Both the position numbers and the translations under genes were made by a program. A model generated the notes under the pieces. That model did not search any database and had not been told where the DNA came from. It saw only the letters and a list, made by a program, of their open reading frames with translations. Shown here in pieces: positions 43,777 through 50,571 of a stretch of DNA of 59,408 nt; the stretch's first letter is position 1, and every line of letters starts with the position of its first letter. The stretch spans positions 1-59,408 of the forward strand of contig JAICGJ010000012.1 in NCBI GenBank assembly GCA_025923195.1. The letters are read 5' to 3'. Source of the stretch: Chryseolinea sp. (lineage in GTDB: Bacteria; Bacteroidota; Bacteroidia; Cytophagales; Cyclobacteriaceae).

Positions 43777-44427
43777 ATGCCGATTATTAAAGTACAAGAG
43801 GAGGCGGCGGGTCAAATTGCCGCAATGCTTCTGCAGATTGAGGCAATAAAACTCAATACCGAAAAACCATTTTCATGGAGCTCCGGCTGGAAGTCGCCCA
43901 TCTATTGCGACAACAGGCTGTCATTATCATATCCTGAGATCAGAAACACTATTAAGCACGCTCTGGTGCAAGCAATACGTGAAAATTTTTTCACAGTAGA
44001 GTCTATTGCCGGTGTCGCCACTGCGGGCATCGCTCAAGGCGCCCTGGTAGCAGATCTTTTAGCGTTGCCATTTTTATACGTCAGGCCTAAGCCGAAGGAC
44101 CATGGCATGGAAAATCTTATCGAAGGTAAAATTGTAAGAAGACAGAAGGTTGTTGTTGTCGAAGATCTGGTTTCTACTGGTGGAAGCTCGTTAAAAGCAA
44201 CACAAGCCCTACGTGACGCCGGACTGGAAGTACTAGGTATGGTCTCGATCTTCAATTATGGATTCGATATTGCAACGCGAAACTTTTATGAGGCCAACAC
44301 TTCGCTGATCAGTCTGTGCGATTATCCCAATTTGTTGAAGTATGCGCTGGAACAAGAGTACATTTCTGAACATCAAATGATTTCGCTCAAAGCGTGGCGC
44401 GTTGATCCAGCTCATTGGAAAAGGTAG
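43777..44427 (+). CDS. pyrE: Orotate phosphoribosyltransferase
   Basis: Pyrimidine synthesis enzyme making orotidine 5'-phosphate from orotate and PRPP. The PRPP motif VVVVEDLVSTGGSSLKAT is clear, with KPFSWSSGWKSPIYCDNRL near the N-terminus and FLYVRPKPKDHGMENLIEG as the flexible catalytic loop. The 216-residue length is standard. It is convergent with the siroheme synthase gene; no terminator was recognised in the 86-base gap. Confidence 0.95.
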   Translation: MPIIKVQEEAAGQIAAMLLQIEAIKLNTEKPFSWSSGWKSPIYCDNRLSLSYPEIRNTIKHALVQAIRENFFTVESIAGVATAGIAQGALVADLLALPFLYVRPKPKDHGMENLIEGKIVRRQKVVVVEDLVSTGGSSLKATQALRDAGLEVLGMVSIFNYGFDIATRNFYEANTSLISLCDYPNLLKYALEQEYISEHQMISLKAWRVDPAHWKR

Positions 44428-44513
44428 TCCCAGTGTTCCAACGAAATACAAATACTATTGCGCCTAAGATTTCCCTCGTCGCTTTTTTTATTGAACTCCC
44501 GAAATGAATTACC

Positions 44514-45104
44514 TTAGGAAACCTTTTCCATTTTCAACCAAGATGAAGTAACCTCATTTAAGACTTTTACTTTATGGTTGAAGTCTCCCTTTATCTGGTC
44601 CCTAATTTTGCTCATGTTATCGAGCAGCTCATTTGTCTCTTCCGGAAGAGCATCCTCCAGGTATTCACGAATGCGTTTAGAAATTGTAGGTGATTTGCCG
44701 TTCGTAGAAACACCGATCTTCAAGTTCCCCTTCGTGACAACTGAACCGAGGTAAAAGTCGCACAAATCGGGTGTATCCGCTACGTTGATAAGGAGCCGGC
44801 GAGACCGCGCAAATTTACGAATGGTTTCATGGAGATTCCTGTTGTTAGTTGCAAGTATCAAAAGATCCTTGTTCCACAGATCCCATAATTTAAAATTCCG
44901 TTCAAAGAGTTTTACATTTTCATTTTGTGCAGCCACTGATTTAATGGATTCATGGATAGTTCTGGCAACTAAGGAGATCTTCGCCATTGGACTATTCTTA
45001 AGAATAGCATTTAACTTCTCCAGACCTACATGCCCACCACCTACTATTAGCGTCTCCAACGAATCTAATTTCAGAAAAATCGGAAATAAGTTATTGCGTT
45101 CCAT
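44514..45104 (-). CDS. Precorrin-2 dehydrogenase / sirohydrochlorin ferrochelatase (CysG-B-like)
   Basis: Last steps of siroheme synthesis: oxidises precorrin-2 with NAD and may insert iron. The 196-residue product starts NNLFPIFLKLDSLETLIVGGG with a Rossmann Gly motif, and has LLINVADTPDLCDFYLGSVVTKGNL and GVSTNGKSPTISKRIREYLED as in Met8p and the CysG N-terminal half. Its start overlaps the methyltransferase gene by 14 bases. It is the last gene of the sulfite reductase operon and supplies that enzyme's cofactor. Confidence 0.92.
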   Translation of the reverse strand: MERNNLFPIFLKLDSLETLIVGGGHVGLEKLNAILKNSPMAKISLVARTIHESIKSVAAQNENVKLFERNFKLWDLWNKDLLILATNNRNLHETIRKFARSRRLLINVADTPDLCDFYLGSVVTKGNLKIGVSTNGKSPTISKRIREYLEDALPEETNELLDNMSKIRDQIKGDFNHKVKVLNEVTSSWLKMEKVS

Positions 45105-45882
45105 ATTGACCTACTGCTTCTTTCGTTACCTCGTTTAATTGACTGGCGTATCGAACAACCTCACCTACGACTATGATAGCTGGTGGGCCAACTTGTTCGA
45201 GGGTCGTTAAGCCAGAAATAGTCGCCACTGTTCCCACGATGTTTTTTTGATTTGGAAGCGTCCCGTTTTGTATTACTGCCACGGGAGTTTCTCCTTTGCC
45301 ATTTGCTTCAAAAAGTCTCATGATGTCATGGATCTTTTTAAGCCCCATCAATATTACTACAGTGGCGGTAGATTGGGCAGCCAACGCCACATCTCCAGAT
45401 ATTCCTCCACTCTTGGTTGTTCCGGTAACCACCCAAAAACTTTCACTCACTCCGCGGGCAGTCACCGGGATATTAATGCTCGCTGGTACAGCTATTGCGC
45501 TGGTTACACCGGGCACAACAGCAGTCTGGACACCATGGGACTCTGCATAGTCGATTTCTTCTGCACCTCTTCCGAAAACAAACGAATCCCCCCCTTTAAG
45601 GCGGACTACATGGCCGTATAAGTATGCAAATTCAACTATCAGTTCGTTTATATCCTCCTGCGAAAACTCATGTGATCCGGCTCGCTTGCCAACGGATAGT
45701 GCTGGAACACCTGGCGGAATTAATTGTAGAATTTCACTGGACACCAGAGCATCAAACAAGACAACATCCGCTGCCTTAATTGCATTGATTCCCTTCACTG
45801 TGATCAATTCAGGATCGCCGGGGCCAGCTCCCACCAGGGTAAGACGTGGTGATCGGTGTAACGTAAAGTCCGGTGTTATCAT
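45091..45882 (-). CDS. cobA: Uroporphyrinogen-III C-methyltransferase
   Basis: SAM-dependent methylation of uroporphyrinogen III to precorrin-2, the branch point into siroheme. The 263-residue product shows LTLVGAGPGDPELITVKG, VVRLKGGDSFVFGRGAEE and PGVTSAIAVPASINIPVTAR, all family hallmarks. It overlaps the reductase gene upstream by four bases and the ferrochelatase gene downstream by 14 bases, so the three are translationally linked. No other cobalamin genes are present, which points to siroheme rather than B12. Confidence 0.94.
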   Translation of the reverse strand: MITPDFTLHRSPRLTLVGAGPGDPELITVKGINAIKAADVVLFDALVSSEILQLIPPGVPALSVGKRAGSHEFSQEDINELIVEFAYLYGHVVRLKGGDSFVFGRGAEEIDYAESHGVQTAVVPGVTSAIAVPASINIPVTARGVSESFWVVTGTTKSGGISGDVALAAQSTATVVILMGLKKIHDIMRLFEANGKGETPVAVIQNGTLPNQKNIVGTVATISGLTTLEQVGPPAIIVVGEVVRYASQLNEVTKEAVGQYGTQ

Positions 45883-47990
45883 TTTTCCATTACCTCCTTT
45901 TCTGTAGAACGATATGCCAGGACTTCCTCCAGGAATTTCACTGATTCAGTAAGATAGGACAGCGCAAAACTATCCGACGGCTCGTGTTTGTTGATGCTAA
46001 GCACGAACTCTTTAAAATTCCCTGGAAACTCGAAAGCGCGGGTGTCAATAAACTCTCTTTGAAAATCGTTTACAGTTTGATACTGCGTACTAGGTTTGAT
46101 GTCACGAATAAGCAACAAAGACTTAGCCGTGTTAATAAATGCACTGTAGCTATGGTAAATAGAGTCAGCATATTGCTTCTTATCGTAAGTTTCCTTGGCC
46201 CACTTCAGTTTATCCTCAGAATCCGCAAGCAGCGTTGCTACCAGATCGATCATCACACCAGCACACTCCCCAACTGCGGTGTGTAAAACAAAATTGCGGT
46301 CCTGACCCCAGTCGATGTACTCATCTGGTGCAACGGACGTGATATCTGCAAGGGGCTTCAACAGCTGATAGAAATGATTCCTACCCATCCTTTTAAAATA
46401 ATCATGATAGTATTCACCATCAGTGCTATTGTCCTCGTAGTCATTCAACAGGAAGCGCAGCGCCTGAGGCCCTCTCTTGCTCGGGATCTTTATGATCTTG
46501 TCAGAAATAATTCCCTCGCCACCCTTGAGTTTACCCCCACCCAGGAGGACAACTAATGCCGGCATCATTTTACCCTGCTTATCCTTGATTGTACTTCCAT
46601 GCAATCCTATGCTGGCTAATCCATGTTGCCCGCATGAATTAGGGCACCCACTTATTTTAATCTTTATATCCTGATTAGAGATTAGTCCTGGAAATTCCTC
46701 ACGAACAACTTTTTCAAGCTCCAACGAGATGGCTGTACTATCAGAAATGCCAAGATTACAGGAATCTGTACCAGGGCAAGCCGTCACGTCGGCGACACTG
46801 TCGAATCCCGGCTCGGCCAAACCAAGCTTATCGAGAGCCAGATACAAGAGCTTTAAGGCTTCAGGACGTACAAATCGAAGTAAGTAACCTTGATTAACCG
46901 TTATTCTGAATTCAGGTGAAGCATACAAATCAATAATGTCAGCAAATTGGCGGGCGAGCTTGGACGACATGTTTCCAAGCGGCAGCTTCACGTAGACCCC
47001 AAAGAAACCTCTTTGCTTCTGTTCAAACACATTAGTTTCCTGCCACAACTGGAATTTTCTTTCATTCGGTATAAGGACCTCTTCAGCAACAATTATCGGC
47101 GGAAGTGCCGGCTCAGGCAATATTTTAATGTCTATCTTATACAACTTGTTTTTCAGTGCTGTCCTTTCATCCTTCACTAGCTCCATGAATTTTTCCAGGC
47201 CGATGTCATTCAACAAGAATTTCATGCGGGCTTTCATTCTTCGGTTGCGTTCTCCATAACGATCAAAAACGCGAAGAACGGCTTCTGTGAATGGTATGAT
47301 CTGGTCTTCCTCCAAAAATTCGTAGGCGACTTGTGCAAGCGTAGGATTTGCTCCAAGACCACCGCCAACGACAACCTTAAAACCACGTTTTCCATCTACT
47401 ATCCGTGGAATGAAACCTATGTCGTGTATGAACGCAAAAGCTGTATCGTCATCACTGGAAGAAAAAGCGATCTTAAATTTTCGTCCCATTTCCTGGCAGA
47501 TGGGATTACGCAAAAAATATTTGAATACTTCGTGAGCATACGGCGAGACATCAAATAACTCCTTAGGATCTATTCCTGCCGTATCAGAGGCCGTAACATT
47601 TCGCACAGTATTGCCACAAGCTTCCCGAGTTGTGATTTCATCCTTTTCAAGTTTCGCCCAAAGTTCAGGAGTCTTATCCAGACTCACGAAATGAATTTGA
47701 ATATCCTGCCGTGTTGTGGCGTGAAGGTTGCTGCTCGCGTATTCATCTGAGATATCCGCTACTCTTCTGATTTGCTTTGTCGTGATCCGGCCAAATGGAA
47801 ACTTGATACGCACCATCTGAACGCCTGACTGACGTTGTCCATAAATACCACGTACCAGTCGGAGGCTACGGAATTTTTCGTCATCAATTTTGCCGTCGCG
47901 AAACAGCTTGATCTTATTTTCCAAGTCAATGATATCGCGGGCAACAATGGGGTTATTTAGGTCTTCTAATTCTGAGCGGAAGCTTTCCAT
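45879..47990 (-). CDS. Assimilatory sulfite reductase (nitrite/sulfite reductase family) with C-terminal helical extension
   Basis: Siroheme-[4Fe-4S] enzyme of 703 residues making sulfide from sulfite in six electrons. Cluster ligands are present: Cys405 and Cys411 (TACPGTDSCNLG), Cys449 and Cys453 (SGCPNSCGQHG). The two NirA-type repeats are visible (MVRIKFPFGRITTKQ, GVYVKLPLGNMSSK). Residues from about 575 to 703 form an extra helical domain (SIYHSYSAFINTAKSLLL), HEPN-like in pattern. Sequence alone leaves nitrite versus sulfite open; the polycysteine leader upstream and the lack of nitrogen genes favour sulfite. It is the first structural gene of the operon; ATG 47990 lies 26 bases after the leader terminator. 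Confidence 0.92.
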   Translation of the reverse strand: MESFRSELEDLNNPIVARDIIDLENKIKLFRDGKIDDEKFRSLRLVRGIYGQRQSGVQMVRIKFPFGRITTKQIRRVADISDEYASSNLHATTRQDIQIHFVSLDKTPELWAKLEKDEITTREACGNTVRNVTASDTAGIDPKELFDVSPYAHEVFKYFLRNPICQEMGRKFKIAFSSSDDDTAFAFIHDIGFIPRIVDGKRGFKVVVGGGLGANPTLAQVAYEFLEEDQIIPFTEAVLRVFDRYGERNRRMKARMKFLLNDIGLEKFMELVKDERTALKNKLYKIDIKILPEPALPPIIVAEEVLIPNERKFQLWQETNVFEQKQRGFFGVYVKLPLGNMSSKLARQFADIIDLYASPEFRITVNQGYLLRFVRPEALKLLYLALDKLGLAEPGFDSVADVTACPGTDSCNLGISDSTAISLELEKVVREEFPGLISNQDIKIKISGCPNSCGQHGLASIGLHGSTIKDKQGKMMPALVVLLGGGKLKGGEGIISDKIIKIPSKRGPQALRFLLNDYEDNSTDGEYYHDYFKRMGRNHFYQLLKPLADITSVAPDEYIDWGQDRNFVLHTAVGECAGVMIDLVATLLADSEDKLKWAKETYDKKQYADSIYHSYSAFINTAKSLLLIRDIKPSTQYQTVNDFQREFIDTRAFEFPGNFKEFVLSINKHEPSDSFALSYLTESVKFLEEVLAYRSTEKEVMEK

Positions 47991-48016
47991 GTTAACTGGT
48001 GGTATATATTAGGTTC

Positions 48017-48050
48017 AAAAAAAAAGCCTTTCCCGTTTGCAGGAAAGGCT
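48017..48050 (-). terminator. Leader terminator (attenuator) before the sulfite reductase operon
   Basis: Read on the minus strand: stem AGCCTTTCC (48050-48042), 8-base loop, stem GGAAAGGCT (48033-48025), then nine U (48025-48017, sharing its first base with the stem). It lies between the polycysteine leader frame and the reductase start, so it can only be a conditional terminator if the operon is expressed from the promoter upstream of the leader. Confidence 0.9.
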
Positions 48051-48109
48051 CGTTATGTTCTATTGTTTTTAGTTTCTCTTAAGACCATTACGTATCCAGA
48101 AATCCTGCA
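48038..48109 (-). promoter_or_regulatory. Candidate antiterminator pairing of the cysteine attenuator
   Basis: On the minus strand TGCAGGA (48109-48103), starting 17 bases after the last of the five consecutive Cys codons, is perfectly complementary to TCCTGCA (48044-48038), which spans the top three bases of the terminator's 5' arm and its loop. A ribosome held at the Cys codons would leave TGCAGGA free to pair and block the terminator. A ribosome that reaches the stop codon (48090-48088) would cover it and let the terminator form. The helix is short (7 bp), so this is a model, not a demonstration. Confidence 0.6.
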
Positions 48110-48189
48110 CGATCCAACAGGTACTTACAGCAGCAGCAACACACTGTTGAAATGCAATTCTTACAAAAACAAGATAAATACTTGGTCAT
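48088..48189 (-). CDS. Polycysteine leader peptide, 33 residues
   Basis: Starts at ATG 48189 and stops at TAA 48088. The peptide begins MTKYLSCFCKNC and contains eight cysteines: 7, 9, 12 and five in a row at 17-21 (codons TGT-TGC-TGC-TGC-TGT at 48141-48127). Cysteine is among the rarest amino acids, so this density by chance is very unlikely. The frame sits between a consensus-like promoter and an intrinsic terminator, directly upstream of the sulfite reductase and siroheme genes that feed cysteine synthesis. The predicted role is to sense charged tRNA-Cys by ribosome stalling; the peptide itself probably has no function. Comparable polycysteine leaders are known upstream of sulfur genes in mycobacteria; I do not know of one described in Bacteroidota. 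Confidence 0.85.
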   Translation of the reverse strand: MTKYLSCFCKNCISTVCCCCCKYLLDRAGFLDT

Positions 48190-48246
48190 ATTAATTACGA
48201 AATTAGGTCAATGGTAACAATTATCAAATCCTTATTCTTCAAAAAT

Positions 48247-48279
48247 GAAAGATATTTTACTTAACAACTGTTAGCAAAA
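48247..48279 (-). promoter_or_regulatory. Promoter of the sulfite reductase leader
   Basis: Read on the minus strand: TTTTG (48279-48275), a 20-base spacer, and TATCTTTC (48254-48247), one mismatch from TAnnTTTG. Transcription would begin near 48240, giving about 50 bases before the leader ATG and about 250 bases before the reductase start. Both spacing and position suit an attenuated leader transcript. Confidence 0.5.
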
Positions 48280-48521
48280 CGTCGCAAACGATGGAAATCG
48301 ACATTATCAACGCCTATACTATCTTTCAACGAGATCCATATCTTCAGGTTGTTTTAATTAACGGTCTTTTTATCCCGTAAATGAATTTCAACCCAGACTA
48401 AACTTCGTCGAGTGCAAAGACTTTCACATCTACCCAGCACTTACCGTAAACCGAACGCGCGGACTGGTATTTTCGTCCATATGTACATCACAAGCCTATC
48501 CGTTATTCCCAGGCTTCTTAA
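48280..48521. other. Intergenic stretch with no recognised gene
   Basis: Lies between the sulfite reductase promoter and the terminator of the LPP20-like gene. Short open frames exist on the plus strand (for example 48292-48378) but have no recognisable product, signal or conserved pattern. It may hold regulator sites for the operon; none is identified. Confidence 0.5.
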
Positions 48522-48550
48522 CAAAAAAATGCCTCATATAAGAGGCATTT
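48522..48550 (-). terminator. Intrinsic terminator after the LPP20-like lipoprotein gene
   Basis: Stem ATGCCTC (48529-48535), loop of six, stem GAGGCAT (48542-48548). On the minus strand it is followed by seven U, and it lies 16 bases after the stop codon of the gene at 48566-49135. It separates that unit from the sulfite reductase leader. Confidence 0.85.
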
Positions 48551-48565
48551 CGCAAGCTTTGTGTT

Positions 48566-49135
48566 TTAGTTTTCCCGTCCCATTTTTTCCATTTCCTTTT
48601 CAAAAGTTTCCTTGAACTTTTCGTAGTCATAATCGATTCTCAACCGATCATCCTTCGAAAGCCGTTCATTGTAGGTCGCTACTAAATCTTCAGCTGAAAG
48701 CTCAATGGCGATGTAGGTCTTATAACTTGCCTGGTCGGTCTTGACCAATTTCTCACAGATGGTTTTTAATCCGGTGAGCTTCTGATCAACGATTTCGCGG
48801 TTCAGTTGCTCAAATCGTTCTTCCACCTGCTCCTTGTTATTCATTTCACGGGAGTTTGTATAGTTGTCAGTCACCGCTTTCACGGTGGTTTGTATACTAG
48901 CGGCAAGTTCAGCGCGCGCATTGGCCAACGCCTTCTTTTTTGACGTTACCTGATCCTGGCTTTCACCAATCGAGTTTGCACGAAAGAATTTATTGGTGGT
49001 AAAGAAATCAGGTCCGGAGCATGGAACGACAACTTCAGTTTCGCCCTTGGGAATCTTCTGTTTACCTTTACAGCCAATCAAAAAAATTCCGCCAAGCAAG
49101 ACAAGCATCAGAGTAGAATAGCTCATGTGTTTCAT
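48566..49135 (-). CDS. LPP20-like lipoprotein
   Basis: Lipoprotein of 189 residues: a signal ending LIGCKGKQK, a short linker with a conserved-looking VVPCSGPDFFTTNKFFRA, then a long helical domain (SKKKALANARAELAASIQTTVKAV) typical of the LPP20/FlgT-N-like family, in which such a helix packs on a small sheet. The C-terminus is charged and helical. It is paired with the gene upstream (49207-50571), which carries a related domain, and is followed by a terminator. Function is unknown; outer-membrane location is inferred. Confidence 0.72.
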   Translation of the reverse strand: MKHMSYSTLMLVLLGGIFLIGCKGKQKIPKGETEVVVPCSGPDFFTTNKFFRANSIGESQDQVTSKKKALANARAELAASIQTTVKAVTDNYTNSREMNNKEQVEERFEQLNREIVDQKLTGLKTICEKLVKTDQASYKTYIAIELSAEDLVATYNERLSKDDRLRIDYDYEKFKETFEKEMEKMGREN

Positions 49136-49206
49136 AATTCAATTGGAAATTTTGGTTTAAAGTATATAGGCAATTTAAATACCAAACTCAAGGGCCTTAT
49201 TTTAGG

Positions 49207-50571
49207 CTATTGCAGGACGGTATCCAATAATTCGTTAATTTTTTCATTTTCTAAAGCTTCTATTGCTTTGTTGTAGGCATCAACGCTGGATTTGTCATAA
49301 TCAAGTCCATACCCCTTCACACGATCAAGCGTTGTGGCATATATTTCCTTTCCTTCCTTCACCGCCAATACTTTGATAACACTTGTCAAATAGGTTACGT
49401 AGATACTTCCTGTAATAGATCCCTTTTCTGCGTCTGACTTGACATCAAACCACAGATCTGCAGACCCACGGCTCTCAGTAAACTCGAAACCATTGTTCGC
49501 CAATAAATTCTTTAACCTGTTTGTTAACTGATAAGTGCTTTTCGTTTGCCCGAAGCTTCTTTCTTCGGCGGTCATATAAACAAGCGGCCGCTGAACCTTC
49601 AGCATAACGTTAGCGCTAGGCAATGTCAGCGTCTTTGTCACCAAGGTATATATTGGTGATGTGCCGGAACCACTCAACGCATCAATGTCAACTTTAACTA
49701 CGATTGACTGCTCAAGGTCTTTGGATCCAATTTTATTGATCAGAATCTTTGACTCTCCGCGCTCATTGGTTTTGTATGTCGGGAAAAGTTCGCCGGCTCC
49801 TTTTTCGAAGCTGGCGTACAAGGGAAGGTAACTTGCTGCCTTACTCAAATCGCTGTATACCGATGTTGCAATAACTGTTTGATTAGTCTGATTTACCCTG
49901 CGATTCACAAAAATCTCATCTGGGTTCAACTGGACTTCTATCTTGTTCAACAACATTTGCAATGACGCATAGATCTCATTTCCAAGAAGTACCTCTTTCC
50001 CATCCAATGTGATGGGTATCGGTTCACCCAGGTATTTCTCGATTGAGCGCAATGCCTGAAAATAAAAACTCATAGCCTGCAAGCGCTCTCCAATCTTCTC
50101 CGCGTCCTTGCCTTTTTGAAGATAATCCGATGCTAACACGGTAGCATTCCGTTTTTGCTCTTCTTTTATCTGACGGTAACGCGCGATCGACAGACGATAA
50201 TATACCCAATAATTTGTCGCGTCCTCCCATGCATCAACCAACTCAAATTCTTCAATTTCATCAGCCGCCGTTGTCTGAATTATCTGTTCGTATTGTTCAG
50301 ACAGTTTCCTGTCAACCTCTATTTGATTCAAGATCGAAGTGCTGGAGATATTCACTTTTATTTCTGAAACTAAATCGTCTAACGCACTTTTTTTTGCCGC
50401 CTGCACATAATTGTTAGAACCACTCTTGATGCTATGACCAATACCTGTGTAGTACCCATCCTGATATGGACTTGTTTTCAGCCATGAAGGTTTCAGCGAT
50501 TCTGGATCTGGTGGCTGGACCTGCGGACTACAACGCGTAAAAAATAGAAGAATGATAAAAAACTTCTTCAC
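49207..50571 (-). CDS. Large LPP20/FlgT-like exported protein
   Basis: Protein of 454 residues with an N-terminal hydrophobic signal (MKKFFIILLFFTRCSPQVQ). A Cys is in place for lipidation, but Arg at -1 makes the lipobox non-canonical. The following KPSWLKTSPYQDGYYTGIGHS and QAAKKSALDDLVSEIKVNISS are the LPP20-type domain; FVNRRVNQTNQTVIATSVYSD begins a later beta-rich part. The remainder is unassigned. It lies 71 bases upstream of the shorter LPP20-like gene and is probably co-transcribed with it. Confidence 0.7.
   Translation of the reverse strand: MKKFFIILLFFTRCSPQVQPPDPESLKPSWLKTSPYQDGYYTGIGHSIKSGSNNYVQAAKKSALDDLVSEIKVNISSTSILNQIEVDRKLSEQYEQIIQTTAADEIEEFELVDAWEDATNYWVYYRLSIARYRQIKEEQKRNATVLASDYLQKGKDAEKIGERLQAMSFYFQALRSIEKYLGEPIPITLDGKEVLLGNEIYASLQMLLNKIEVQLNPDEIFVNRRVNQTNQTVIATSVYSDLSKAASYLPLYASFEKGAGELFPTYKTNERGESKILINKIGSKDLEQSIVVKVDIDALSGSGTSPIYTLVTKTLTLPSANVMLKVQRPLVYMTAEERSFGQTKSTYQLTNRLKNLLANNGFEFTESRGSADLWFDVKSDAEKGSITGSIYVTYLTSVIKVLAVKEGKEIYATTLDRVKGYGLDYDKSSVDAYNKAIEALENEKINELLDTVLQ

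What the first reader, a model, noticed from the sequence alone, without database searches (positions are those of the whole stretch)
48017..48279. Polycysteine leader peptide and attenuator controlling the sulfite reductase/siroheme operon
Seen: on the minus strand a near-consensus promoter, a 33-codon frame with 8 Cys (five consecutive), a 9-bp terminator with a U tract, and the reductase start 26 bases later. A 7-nt segment located 17 bases after the Cys run (TGCAGGA) is perfectly complementary to the terminator loop and top of its 5' arm (TCCTGCA). Known: ribosome stalling at scarce-amino-acid codons controls trp, his and leu operons in proteobacteria, and polycysteine leaders occur before mycobacterial sulfur genes. 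Inference: low charged tRNA-Cys stalls the ribosome, frees the antiterminator and turns on sulfide and siroheme production. I know of no described cysteine attenuator in Bacteroidota.
Basis: partly seen in the sequence, partly recalled or inferred. Interest (0 to 1): 0.88.

Follow-up and report, generated by a model that had tools for sequence, protein, structure and literature searches.

The report
Cysteine-sensing switch before sulfite reductase
A short stretch of genetic code packed with cysteine codons sits just ahead of the genes that make sulfide in a Chryseolinea-like bacterium and in many relatives, and it most likely lets the cell switch those genes on when cysteine runs short.

Summary
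In detail: a 33-codon frame with eight Cys (five in a row), a 12-pair terminator with a U tract, and a 7-nt segment complementary to the terminator's 5' arm and loop, ahead of a sulfite reductase-siroheme operon in a Chryseolinea-like genome. It is not chance: a CC (or CWC) frame plus a terminator 0-60 nt after its stop precedes 113 of 229 homologous reductases, 0-1 of 229 in shuffles, and 0 of 234 other genes. Antiterminator pairing holds while sequences diverge: mean -14.2 kcal/mol against -9.7 +/- 0.3 with partners permuted among 75 non-redundant loci, 0 of 20,000. Best explanation: ribosome-mediated transcription attenuation sensing charged tRNA-Cys; nothing was measured. Two extensions: cysM-like cysteine synthase genes have frame and terminator in 11 of 14 loci; SAM riboswitches before sulfhydrylase, ferredoxin, reductase and sulfatase genes are followed by a second kind of poly-Cys frame, usually ending at its stop codon without a terminator (26 of 28 non-metH sites, 0 of 12 metH sites), one of them in the window's own genome. 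Leader-peptide attenuation is known; a terminator-based cysteine version in Bacteroidota and the SAM/poly-Cys composite were not found in ten paper searches.

The parts
48198..48228 (-). Bacteroidota-type promoter-like sequence TTTG-N19-TAATTTCG, 8 nt before the leader ATG (implies a very short 5' UTR)
   Evidence: read directly; consensus recalled; not an E. coli-type promoter
48088..48189 (-). leader ORF, 33 codons + TAA, 8 Cys
   Evidence: Cys-rich frames at the same place in relatives
48127..48141 (-). regulatory codons: five consecutive Cys codons TGT TGC TGC TGC TGT
48103..48109 (-). antiterminator 5' strand (segment 2) TGCAGGA, 17 nt after the Cys run, inside the last codons of the leader
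   Evidence: comparative pairing tests
48038..48044 (-). antiterminator 3' strand TCCTGCA (top of terminator 5' arm and loop)
48017..48051 (-). intrinsic terminator, 12 bp stem, 4-nt loop, U tract
45879..47990 (-). assimilatory sulfite reductase, ferredoxin-type (NIR_SIR domains; NirA-like), first gene of the controlled operon
   Evidence: in relatives it lies near cysH and cysD
45091..45882 (-). uroporphyrinogen-III C-methyltransferase (cobA / CysG C-terminal type)
   Evidence: above curated cut-off
44514..45104 (-). precorrin-2 dehydrogenase / siroheme synthase N-terminal type
   Evidence: TIGR01470 above cut-off
48526..48551 (-). terminator-like hairpin after the preceding gene (48566-49135), separating it from the leader transcription unit

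Best explanation
This is a cysteine-specific, ribosome-mediated transcription attenuator of the trp type. Transcription starts just before the leader ATG (inferred). When Cys-tRNA is charged, the ribosome runs to the leader stop, covers segment 2 (TGCAGGA), and the 12-bp terminator forms, so the sulfite reductase-siroheme genes stay off. When Cys-tRNA is short, the ribosome stalls in the Cys run, segment 2 is free and pairs with the terminator's 5' arm and loop as they emerge, the terminator fails to form in time, and the operon is read. Shown: the parts, their conservation in many relatives, the link to sulfite reductase and to a cysM-like cysteine synthase, and preserved pairing through sequence change. 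Inferred: translation of the leader, stalling, termination, and cysteine response.
For: (1) Joint feature (CC/CWC frame + terminator 0-60 nt after its stop): 113/229 reductase upstreams; ten shuffles gave 0 or 1. Control genes of the named loci: 0 of 234, 26 of them with a terminator (a first control, 1 of 239, had wrongly included some reductases, and its one hit was the L055 reductase leader). (2) Cys is by far the most enriched residue: 103/229 observed against 5.0 expected; W comes next by z-score (13 against 0.2), then G, E, V, T, A, which I attribute to coding sequence of upstream genes. (3) Terminators in 96/103 Cys-positive and 37/126 Cys-negative loci. (4) Antiterminator: 75 non-redundant loci, own -14.2, permuted -9.73 +/- 0.30, 0/20,000; equal-length segment upstream of the Cys codons -6.8. 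Helices of 7 bp or more in 65 of 110 loci against 23.1 (shuffled) and 28.1 (swapped). (5) Geometry: segment 2 begins a median 15 nt after the last Cys codon. (6) Within the window's closer relatives the helix differs on both sides: TGCAGGA/TCCTGCA, GTGCAGGAA/TTCCTGCAC, GGCAGGAG/TTCCTGCC. (7) Cys-rich frame and terminator before cysM-like cysteine synthases in 11 of 14 loci. (8) Folding of the window leader: with the ribosome placed at the stop only the terminator folds; with it placed at the Cys run and the transcript ending at the loop, the antiterminator folds.
Against: In the window, with the full leader transcribed, the terminator remains in the minimum-energy fold even with the ribosome at the Cys run. 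The closest relative (L002, 88% reductase identity) keeps only CAGGA/TCCTG and its pairing is no better than shuffled sequence (23 of 30 shuffles as good); 17 of 110 loci do not beat the mean of swapped arms, and only 45 of 110 beat all 30 shuffles. The own arm was the single best partner in only 14 of 75 loci and in the top tenth in 38 of 75. Two relatives (L014, L015; 73% and 67% identity) lack leader and terminator, and so do all 20 loci I grouped as Cytophagaceae/Spirosomataceae by the joint test. The prediction that, where cysH and cysD precede the reductase, the leader would sit before cysH failed. No expression data.
Confidence: 0.86

Rival explanations
1. The leader is a nascent-peptide arrest sensor (redox, metal or sulfide) rather than a charged-tRNA sensor; the Cys-rich peptide itself stalls the ribosome.
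For: In one clade of 18 loci the peptide core [CR]ACW[FYH]WCC is kept while the preceding Arg, the Ala and a Cys codon vary synonymously, which points to selection on the peptide. Trp is enriched (13 against 0.2).
Against: Elsewhere only Cys content is kept; peptide length, flanks and spacing vary widely and I see no shared fixed CxxC motif. The controlled genes make sulfide and cysteine.
Confidence: 0.1
2. A constitutive terminator with a coincidental Cys-rich frame: a plain transcription-level brake, not a switch.
For: The terminator is thermodynamically dominant in the window.
Against: Co-occurrence of Cys frame and terminator in 113 of 229 loci against 0-1 in shuffles and 0 of 234 control genes, and the preserved antiterminator.
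Confidence: 0.03
3. Translation-level or Rho-dependent control, as proposed for mycobacterial polycysteine leaders, with the hairpin as a bystander.
For: Actinobacterial polycysteine leaders lack obvious terminators and a Rho route was proposed (PMC1262725, passages); the second kind of leader found here, after SAM riboswitches, usually shows no convincing terminator and is followed by C-rich, G-poor sequence.
Against: At the window and in the type A loci a strong intrinsic terminator lies between the leader and the gene, and its 5' arm pairs with the leader end.
Confidence: 0.08

Closest known systems
trp/his/leu-type leader-peptide transcription attenuators of Proteobacteria (recalled)
   Same: short frame with codons for the pathway's end product, alternative antiterminator and terminator, U tract, first gene shortly after
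   Different: cysteine as the sensed amino acid; Bacteroidota; very short predicted 5' UTR; antiterminator helix in the window only 7 bp, on the loop side of the terminator arm
Polycysteine leader ORFs of mycobacteria and other Actinobacteria (Seliverstov et al. 2005, PMC1262725, passages; Canestrari et al. 2020, not held, known here only from citing papers)
   Same: runs of Cys codons in a short frame before sulfur/cysteine genes
   Different: the Actinobacterial leaders have no obvious intrinsic terminator (PMC1262725) and the M. smegmatis case is described as translation attenuation (PMC13236596 passage); here there is a conserved terminator and antiterminator
Leader-peptide attenuators reported in Bacteroidota: Flavobacterium psychrophilum (PMC9723704, passages and section 19) and sORFs in long 5' UTRs of Bacteroides thetaiotaomicron (PMC7366714, passages)
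   Same: Bacteroidota, short frames in 5' UTRs, attenuation inferred; for F. psychrophilum at amino-acid biosynthesis operons
   Different: the parts I saw do not mention cysteine or sulfite reductase in this connection; supplementary lists could not be read
SAM riboswitch (RF00162)
   Same: controls sulfur genes; lies next to poly-Cys frames in relatives and at a metY-like gene in the window's own genome
   Different: absent from the window region; the window element has no aptamer

Membership tests
Ribosome-mediated leader-peptide transcription attenuator (trp type) | short leader ORF with a cluster of codons for the pathway product | tested here: met
   8 Cys in 33 codons; conserved in many relatives
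Ribosome-mediated leader-peptide transcription attenuator (trp type) | intrinsic terminator between leader stop and first gene | tested here: met
   12 bp + U tract; 96/103 Cys-positive loci
Ribosome-mediated leader-peptide transcription attenuator (trp type) | antiterminator mutually exclusive with the terminator, placed just after the regulatory codons | tested here: met
   weak in the closest relative L002 and absent as a signal in 17 of 110 loci
Ribosome-mediated leader-peptide transcription attenuator (trp type) | 1:2 (pause) hairpin sequestering segment 2 when nothing is translated | tested here: inconclusive
   the no-ribosome fold of the window leader pairs most of segment 2 within the leader; not tested comparatively
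Ribosome-mediated leader-peptide transcription attenuator (trp type) | leader is translated and read-through rises when the amino acid is scarce | not testable with these tools
   needs RNA and reporter work
Mycobacterial-type polycysteine leader | poly-Cys short frame before sulfur genes | tested here: met
Mycobacterial-type polycysteine leader | no intrinsic terminator | tested here: not met
   terminator present
Mycobacterial-type polycysteine leader | leaderless start (AUG at or next to the 5' end) | tested here: inconclusive
   promoter-like box ends 8 nt before ATG; no start-site data
T-box or SAM riboswitch at the window | match to the Rfam family | tested here: not met
   no T-box or SAM match up to E 5 in 44000-50000

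The most novel reading that the evidence does not exclude
Bacteroidota of this group run a whole sulfur regulon by reading charged tRNA-Cys, with two kinds of poly-Cys leader. Type A (sulfite reductase, cysM-like cysteine synthase) works by a terminator and antiterminator. Type B is a composite two-input element: a SAM riboswitch immediately followed by a frame whose Cys run usually ends at the stop codon, usually no convincing terminator, then a C-rich G-poor stretch, working like tnaC by a stalled ribosome shielding a Rho site. SAM alone governs metH; SAM plus charged tRNA-Cys governs sulfide use and sulfur scavenging (metY-like, ferredoxin-metZ-reductase, sulfatase, PhyH dioxygenase). Seen at 40 SAM sites in 12 genomes: three Cys within five codons in 26 of 28 sites not before metH and 0 of 12 before metH-like genes; counting any CC frame, 27 of 28 and 1 of 12. 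The exceptions are HCCHS (L436) and a homoserine dehydrogenase-like gene without a Cys frame (L411).
Probability: 0.5. Interest if true: 0.82.

Novelty: new variant of a known kind. Interest (0 to 1): 0.72.

Why it matters
It gives a concrete, testable cysteine sensor in Bacteroidota, and shows a terminator-based cysteine attenuator where the polycysteine leaders described in Actinobacteria lack obvious terminators. The same genomes offer a natural comparison of one leader type with a terminator and one that usually lacks it and is joined to a SAM riboswitch, so how amino-acid leaders and metabolite riboswitches are combined can be tested directly. The leaders also point to sulfur genes among unannotated ones.

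Tried and rejected
Prediction that where cysH and cysD precede the reductase the Cys leader sits before cysH: no convincing one in the 30 loci read (of 33 places, 15 genomes); two loci had a frame with a single CC. A 138-codon frame beginning MLSKKTKYA stands ahead of cysH in at least five of these genomes; one copy was scanned and is Rrf2 family.

Cys leaders before cysH/cysD in the window's genus: not conserved; one CCCC frame 150 nt before cysH in one genome, no clear terminator.

A known RNA family at the window: only sub-threshold hits, best PyrG_leader at 27.5 bits against a cut-off of 65, which I read as chance similarity to the terminator hairpin.

Leader peptides in family libraries: no hit for the four scanned against NCBIfam (one from the window, three from relatives) and three of these against Pfam.

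Own-genome scan for four consecutive Cys codons: 43 sites against 31 for the reversed pattern, so the run alone is not rare; 30 of the 43 were inspected.

Pairing of the type B Cys run with the sequence after its stop: no general signal, 6 of 27 better than 95% of shuffles. In that call the second frame was picked for L185, and L390 and L400 gave none.

Strict hairpin finder without mismatches missed many terminators; replaced by RNA folding.

Literature: ten searches. Lopatovskaya et al. 2010 on attenuation across bacteria (seen only as a reference) was not looked up and Canestrari et al. 2020 is not held, so a prior prediction there cannot be excluded.

Corrections made on checking: the control gene count had included reductases in loci cut short, redone; a SAM site first counted as metH (L411) is a homoserine dehydrogenase-like gene; one more reductase-adjacent ferredoxin copy (G051) had been overlooked and was fetched; terminators of five cysM-like loci were computed only.

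Rows dropped before the 229 count: L031-L034 and L278 (same loci as others), L283-L285 (distant, start unclear). G168 was not fetched because its match lacks the N-terminus. The antiterminator tests used 110 loci with at least two Cys in a six-codon window and a terminator of -10 kcal/mol or better, within the distances set, then 75 non-redundant ones. One search found a helix of 4 bp or more in 109 of the 110 and stopped with an error after printing the counts cited.

Full report
What is in the window. On the minus strand a terminator-like hairpin ends the preceding gene (48551-48526). About 300 nt on, a TTTG-N19-TAATTTCG box (48228-48198) is followed 8 nt later by an ATG (48189). The frame MTKYLSCFCKNCISTVCCCCCKYLLDRAGFLDT ends at 48088. 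A 12-pair terminator (48051-48024) with a U tract to 48017 follows, then the sulfite reductase ATG at 47990. The operon is reductase (45879-47990; NIR_SIR domains), uroporphyrinogen-III methyltransferase and siroheme synthase N-terminal domain, both above NCBIfam cut-offs, with overlapping ends. The reductase itself is below the cut-off of every NCBIfam model, best NirA family. I call it a sulfite reductase because in relatives it lies close to cysH and cysD and behind a frame that looks like the end of CysN (the latter recognised by eye), and because of its cysteine-codon leader; its activity is not shown. The genome is Chryseolinea-like: the nearest named loci are Chryseolinea sp. H1M3-3 (88%) and C. 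lacunae (78%).

Is it more than chance? 143 of 196 genomes searched in the family have the reductase. I read upstream regions of 142 of these, 76 further named loci and 11 from a draw over the phylum, 229 in all. A short frame with at least 3 Cys in 6 codons occurs in 103 of 229, against 5.0 +/- 1.9 in 20 dinucleotide shuffles. A joint test (CC or CWC frame with a terminator 0-60 nt after its stop) is met by 113 of 229 and by 0 or 1 in ten shuffles, and by 0 of 234 other genes of the named loci, 26 of which have a terminator. A first control of 239 genes had one hit, which was the L055 reductase leader counted by mistake. Where no gene runs close upstream (159 loci), 89 have the strict Cys frame and 85 of those a terminator; 32 of the other 70 also have a terminator, many with a two-Cys frame such as MHYCCKTQ or LMYCCMRS. 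By name: Pedobacter 18 of 29, Mucilaginibacter 14 of 16, other Sphingobacteriales 2 of 5, Pontibacter and similar 2 of 5, loci named Cytophagaceae, Arcicella, Aquirufa, Spirosoma and the like 0 of 20 (L052 is in no group); the window's family 73 of 142. Of the three matches from outside the window's class, two have a Cys-rich frame and terminator (L280, in a 104-codon frame counted from its first GTG, and L281); the third, L282, has neither.

Is there an antiterminator? In 110 loci with Cys frame and terminator, the stretch between the last Cys codon and the terminator pairs with the terminator's 5' arm and loop at -13.1 kcal/mol on average, against -9.3 with arms of other loci and -8.4 when shuffled; 93 of 110 beat their swap mean and 45 of 110 beat all 30 shuffles. 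In 75 non-redundant loci: -14.2 against -9.73 +/- 0.30 permuted, 0 of 20,000; an equal stretch upstream of the Cys codons gives -6.8. There are 93 distinct helices in 109 loci, so the pairing is kept while the letters change. Weak points: L002, the closest relative, keeps only 5 bp; 17 of 110 loci (for example L005, L030, L119, L120, L131, L137) do not beat swapped arms; the own arm is the best of all arms in only 14 of 75. In the window the terminator is still in the best fold of the complete leader with a ribosome at the Cys run, while the antiterminator is the fold when transcription has reached only the loop. So the model needs timing: the antiterminator must form first.

Absences. L014 and L015 lack leader and terminator. 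In reductases with a gene close upstream (70 loci) only 14 have the strict frame. In 15 genomes of the leaderless kind cysH and cysD mostly lie near the reductase; I expected the leader before cysH and found no convincing one in 30 loci. A 138-codon frame, Rrf2 family in the one copy scanned, stands ahead of cysH in at least five. This suggests different regulators in different lineages, which is inference.

The peptide. Only Cys content is shared overall, with TGT (274) and TGC (119) both used. In one clade of 18 loci the core [CR]ACW[FYH]WCC is held although the preceding Arg (6 codons), the Ala (4 codons) and a Cys vary synonymously. There the nascent peptide may matter too; this is the best case for the arrest-peptide rival.

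A wider regulon. I scanned six family genomes for five consecutive Cys codons. They were chosen because poly-Cys frames were already known before their reductases, so finding those again (all six) proves nothing; the use was in the other hits, of which I could inspect those with loci (30 of 37 places). In G016 one lies, with a -19.8 kcal/mol terminator, before a cysM-like cysteine synthase (PALP domain; best NCBIfam cysM, below cut-off), and one before a YfhL-type ferredoxin. The remaining hits were inside other genes or without a plausible target. Of 14 cysM-like loci from 118 genomes, 11 have a Cys-rich frame and a terminator of -13 kcal/mol or better; L347 has a terminator without such a frame, L356 neither, and L359 lacks the N-terminus. 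The window's genome has no such gene at that cut-off.

A second kind of leader. Comparing places by eye, 14 ferredoxin copies lie near a reductase. Thirteen have a SAM riboswitch (RF00162) upstream, followed by a Cys-rich frame (weak in L390 and L400), usually without a convincing terminator. In the fourteenth (G051) the contig begins inside CCCCCC-stop, so a SAM element cannot be seen. Of ferredoxin copies elsewhere, 0 of 22 tested have a SAM element. Ten SAM elements also lie before reductases themselves, followed by such a frame and usually a second, type A one. In G016 the gene between ferredoxin and reductase resembles O-succinylhomoserine sulfhydrylase (507.8 bits against a cut-off of 522). 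In 12 genomes there are 40 distinct SAM sites. Twelve precede metH-like genes: none has three Cys within five codons, one (L405) has a frame with a CC. Twenty-eight precede other genes: 11 metY-like, 3 ferredoxin, 3 reductase, and in the window's genus 3 of sulfatase kind, 3 of PhyH dioxygenase kind, 3 small proteins and 1 glutamate-type dehydrogenase, plus 1 homoserine dehydrogenase-like in G002. Of these, 26 have three Cys within five codons, L436 only HCCHS, and L411 (homoserine dehydrogenase-like) none (one protein of each of five kinds was scanned in Pfam, two of them small proteins without a family; the metH, metY and homoserine dehydrogenase labels are recalled from motifs). In the window's own genome SAM plus MKKIIESLTLGTSKVRLRAYLQEIHHFIGDMLCICTACMCCCRRSC precedes a metY-like gene (L407), and SAM without a Cys frame precedes a metH-like gene (L414). 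In 18 of 27 such leaders the last codon is Cys, and the 90 nt after the stop are C-rich and G-poor (C/G 1.59, against 0.92 and 0.98 in two backgrounds; C exceeds G in 24 of 27). A stalled ribosome that shields a Rho site, as in tnaC (recalled), would fit; this is a hypothesis.

What is known. Polycysteine leaders without obvious terminators are described in Actinobacteria (PMC1262725, passages), and the M. smegmatis case is described as translation attenuation in a passage of PMC13236596. F. psychrophilum is reported to have leader-peptide attenuation of amino-acid operons (PMC9723704, section 19), and B. thetaiotaomicron to have short frames in long 5' UTRs reminiscent of it (PMC7366714, passages). 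PMC2965389 (passages) stated in 2010 that leader-peptide systems had not been shown outside Proteobacteria and Actinobacteria, and added Firmicutes. My ten searches listed no cysteine attenuator in Bacteroidota and no SAM/poly-Cys composite, but Lopatovskaya et al. 2010 and Canestrari et al. 2020 were not read.

Verdict. It is a new variant of a known kind; the composite with SAM riboswitches is the most novel part and the least understood.

Noticed in passing
G000:C254:3405-3515 and following (L407:1501-1900): Second poly-Cys leader in the window's own genome: SAM riboswitch, then a frame ending ...MCCCRRSC, then a metY-like sulfhydrylase gene.
   Followed up: yes
L401-L440 (40 SAM sites, 12 genomes, with L407 and L414 shared): Three Cys within five codons follow the SAM riboswitch at 26 of 28 sites not before metH and at 0 of 12 metH-like sites.
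   Followed up: yes
L346-L358: cysM-like cysteine synthase genes carry a Cys-rich leader frame and terminator in 11 of 14 loci.
   Followed up: yes
L016-L028, L112, L114-L117: Clade with a leader core [CR]ACW[FYH]WCC kept at the amino-acid level, Trp invariant; possible nascent-peptide effect.
   Followed up: partly
L287:2447-2860 and similar: An Rrf2-family regulator gene stands ahead of cysH in lineages that lack the Cys leader.
   Followed up: partly
L264:1254-1293: Frame MMSCCCCSRATE 150 nt before cysH in one relative, without a clear terminator.
   Followed up: no
one search list: G031, G102, G082, G143, G166, G108: Reductase matches reported with one in-frame TGA; may be only the terminal stop codon or may be internal.
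   Followed up: no
L435, L437, L440: Genes of the kind that is a sulfatase by Pfam in L440 sit under the SAM/poly-Cys element, suggesting sulfur scavenging in the same regulon.
   Followed up: partly
L351 upstream of its cysM-like gene: Two Cys-rich frames, each followed by its own terminator-like hairpin, in tandem.
   Followed up: no
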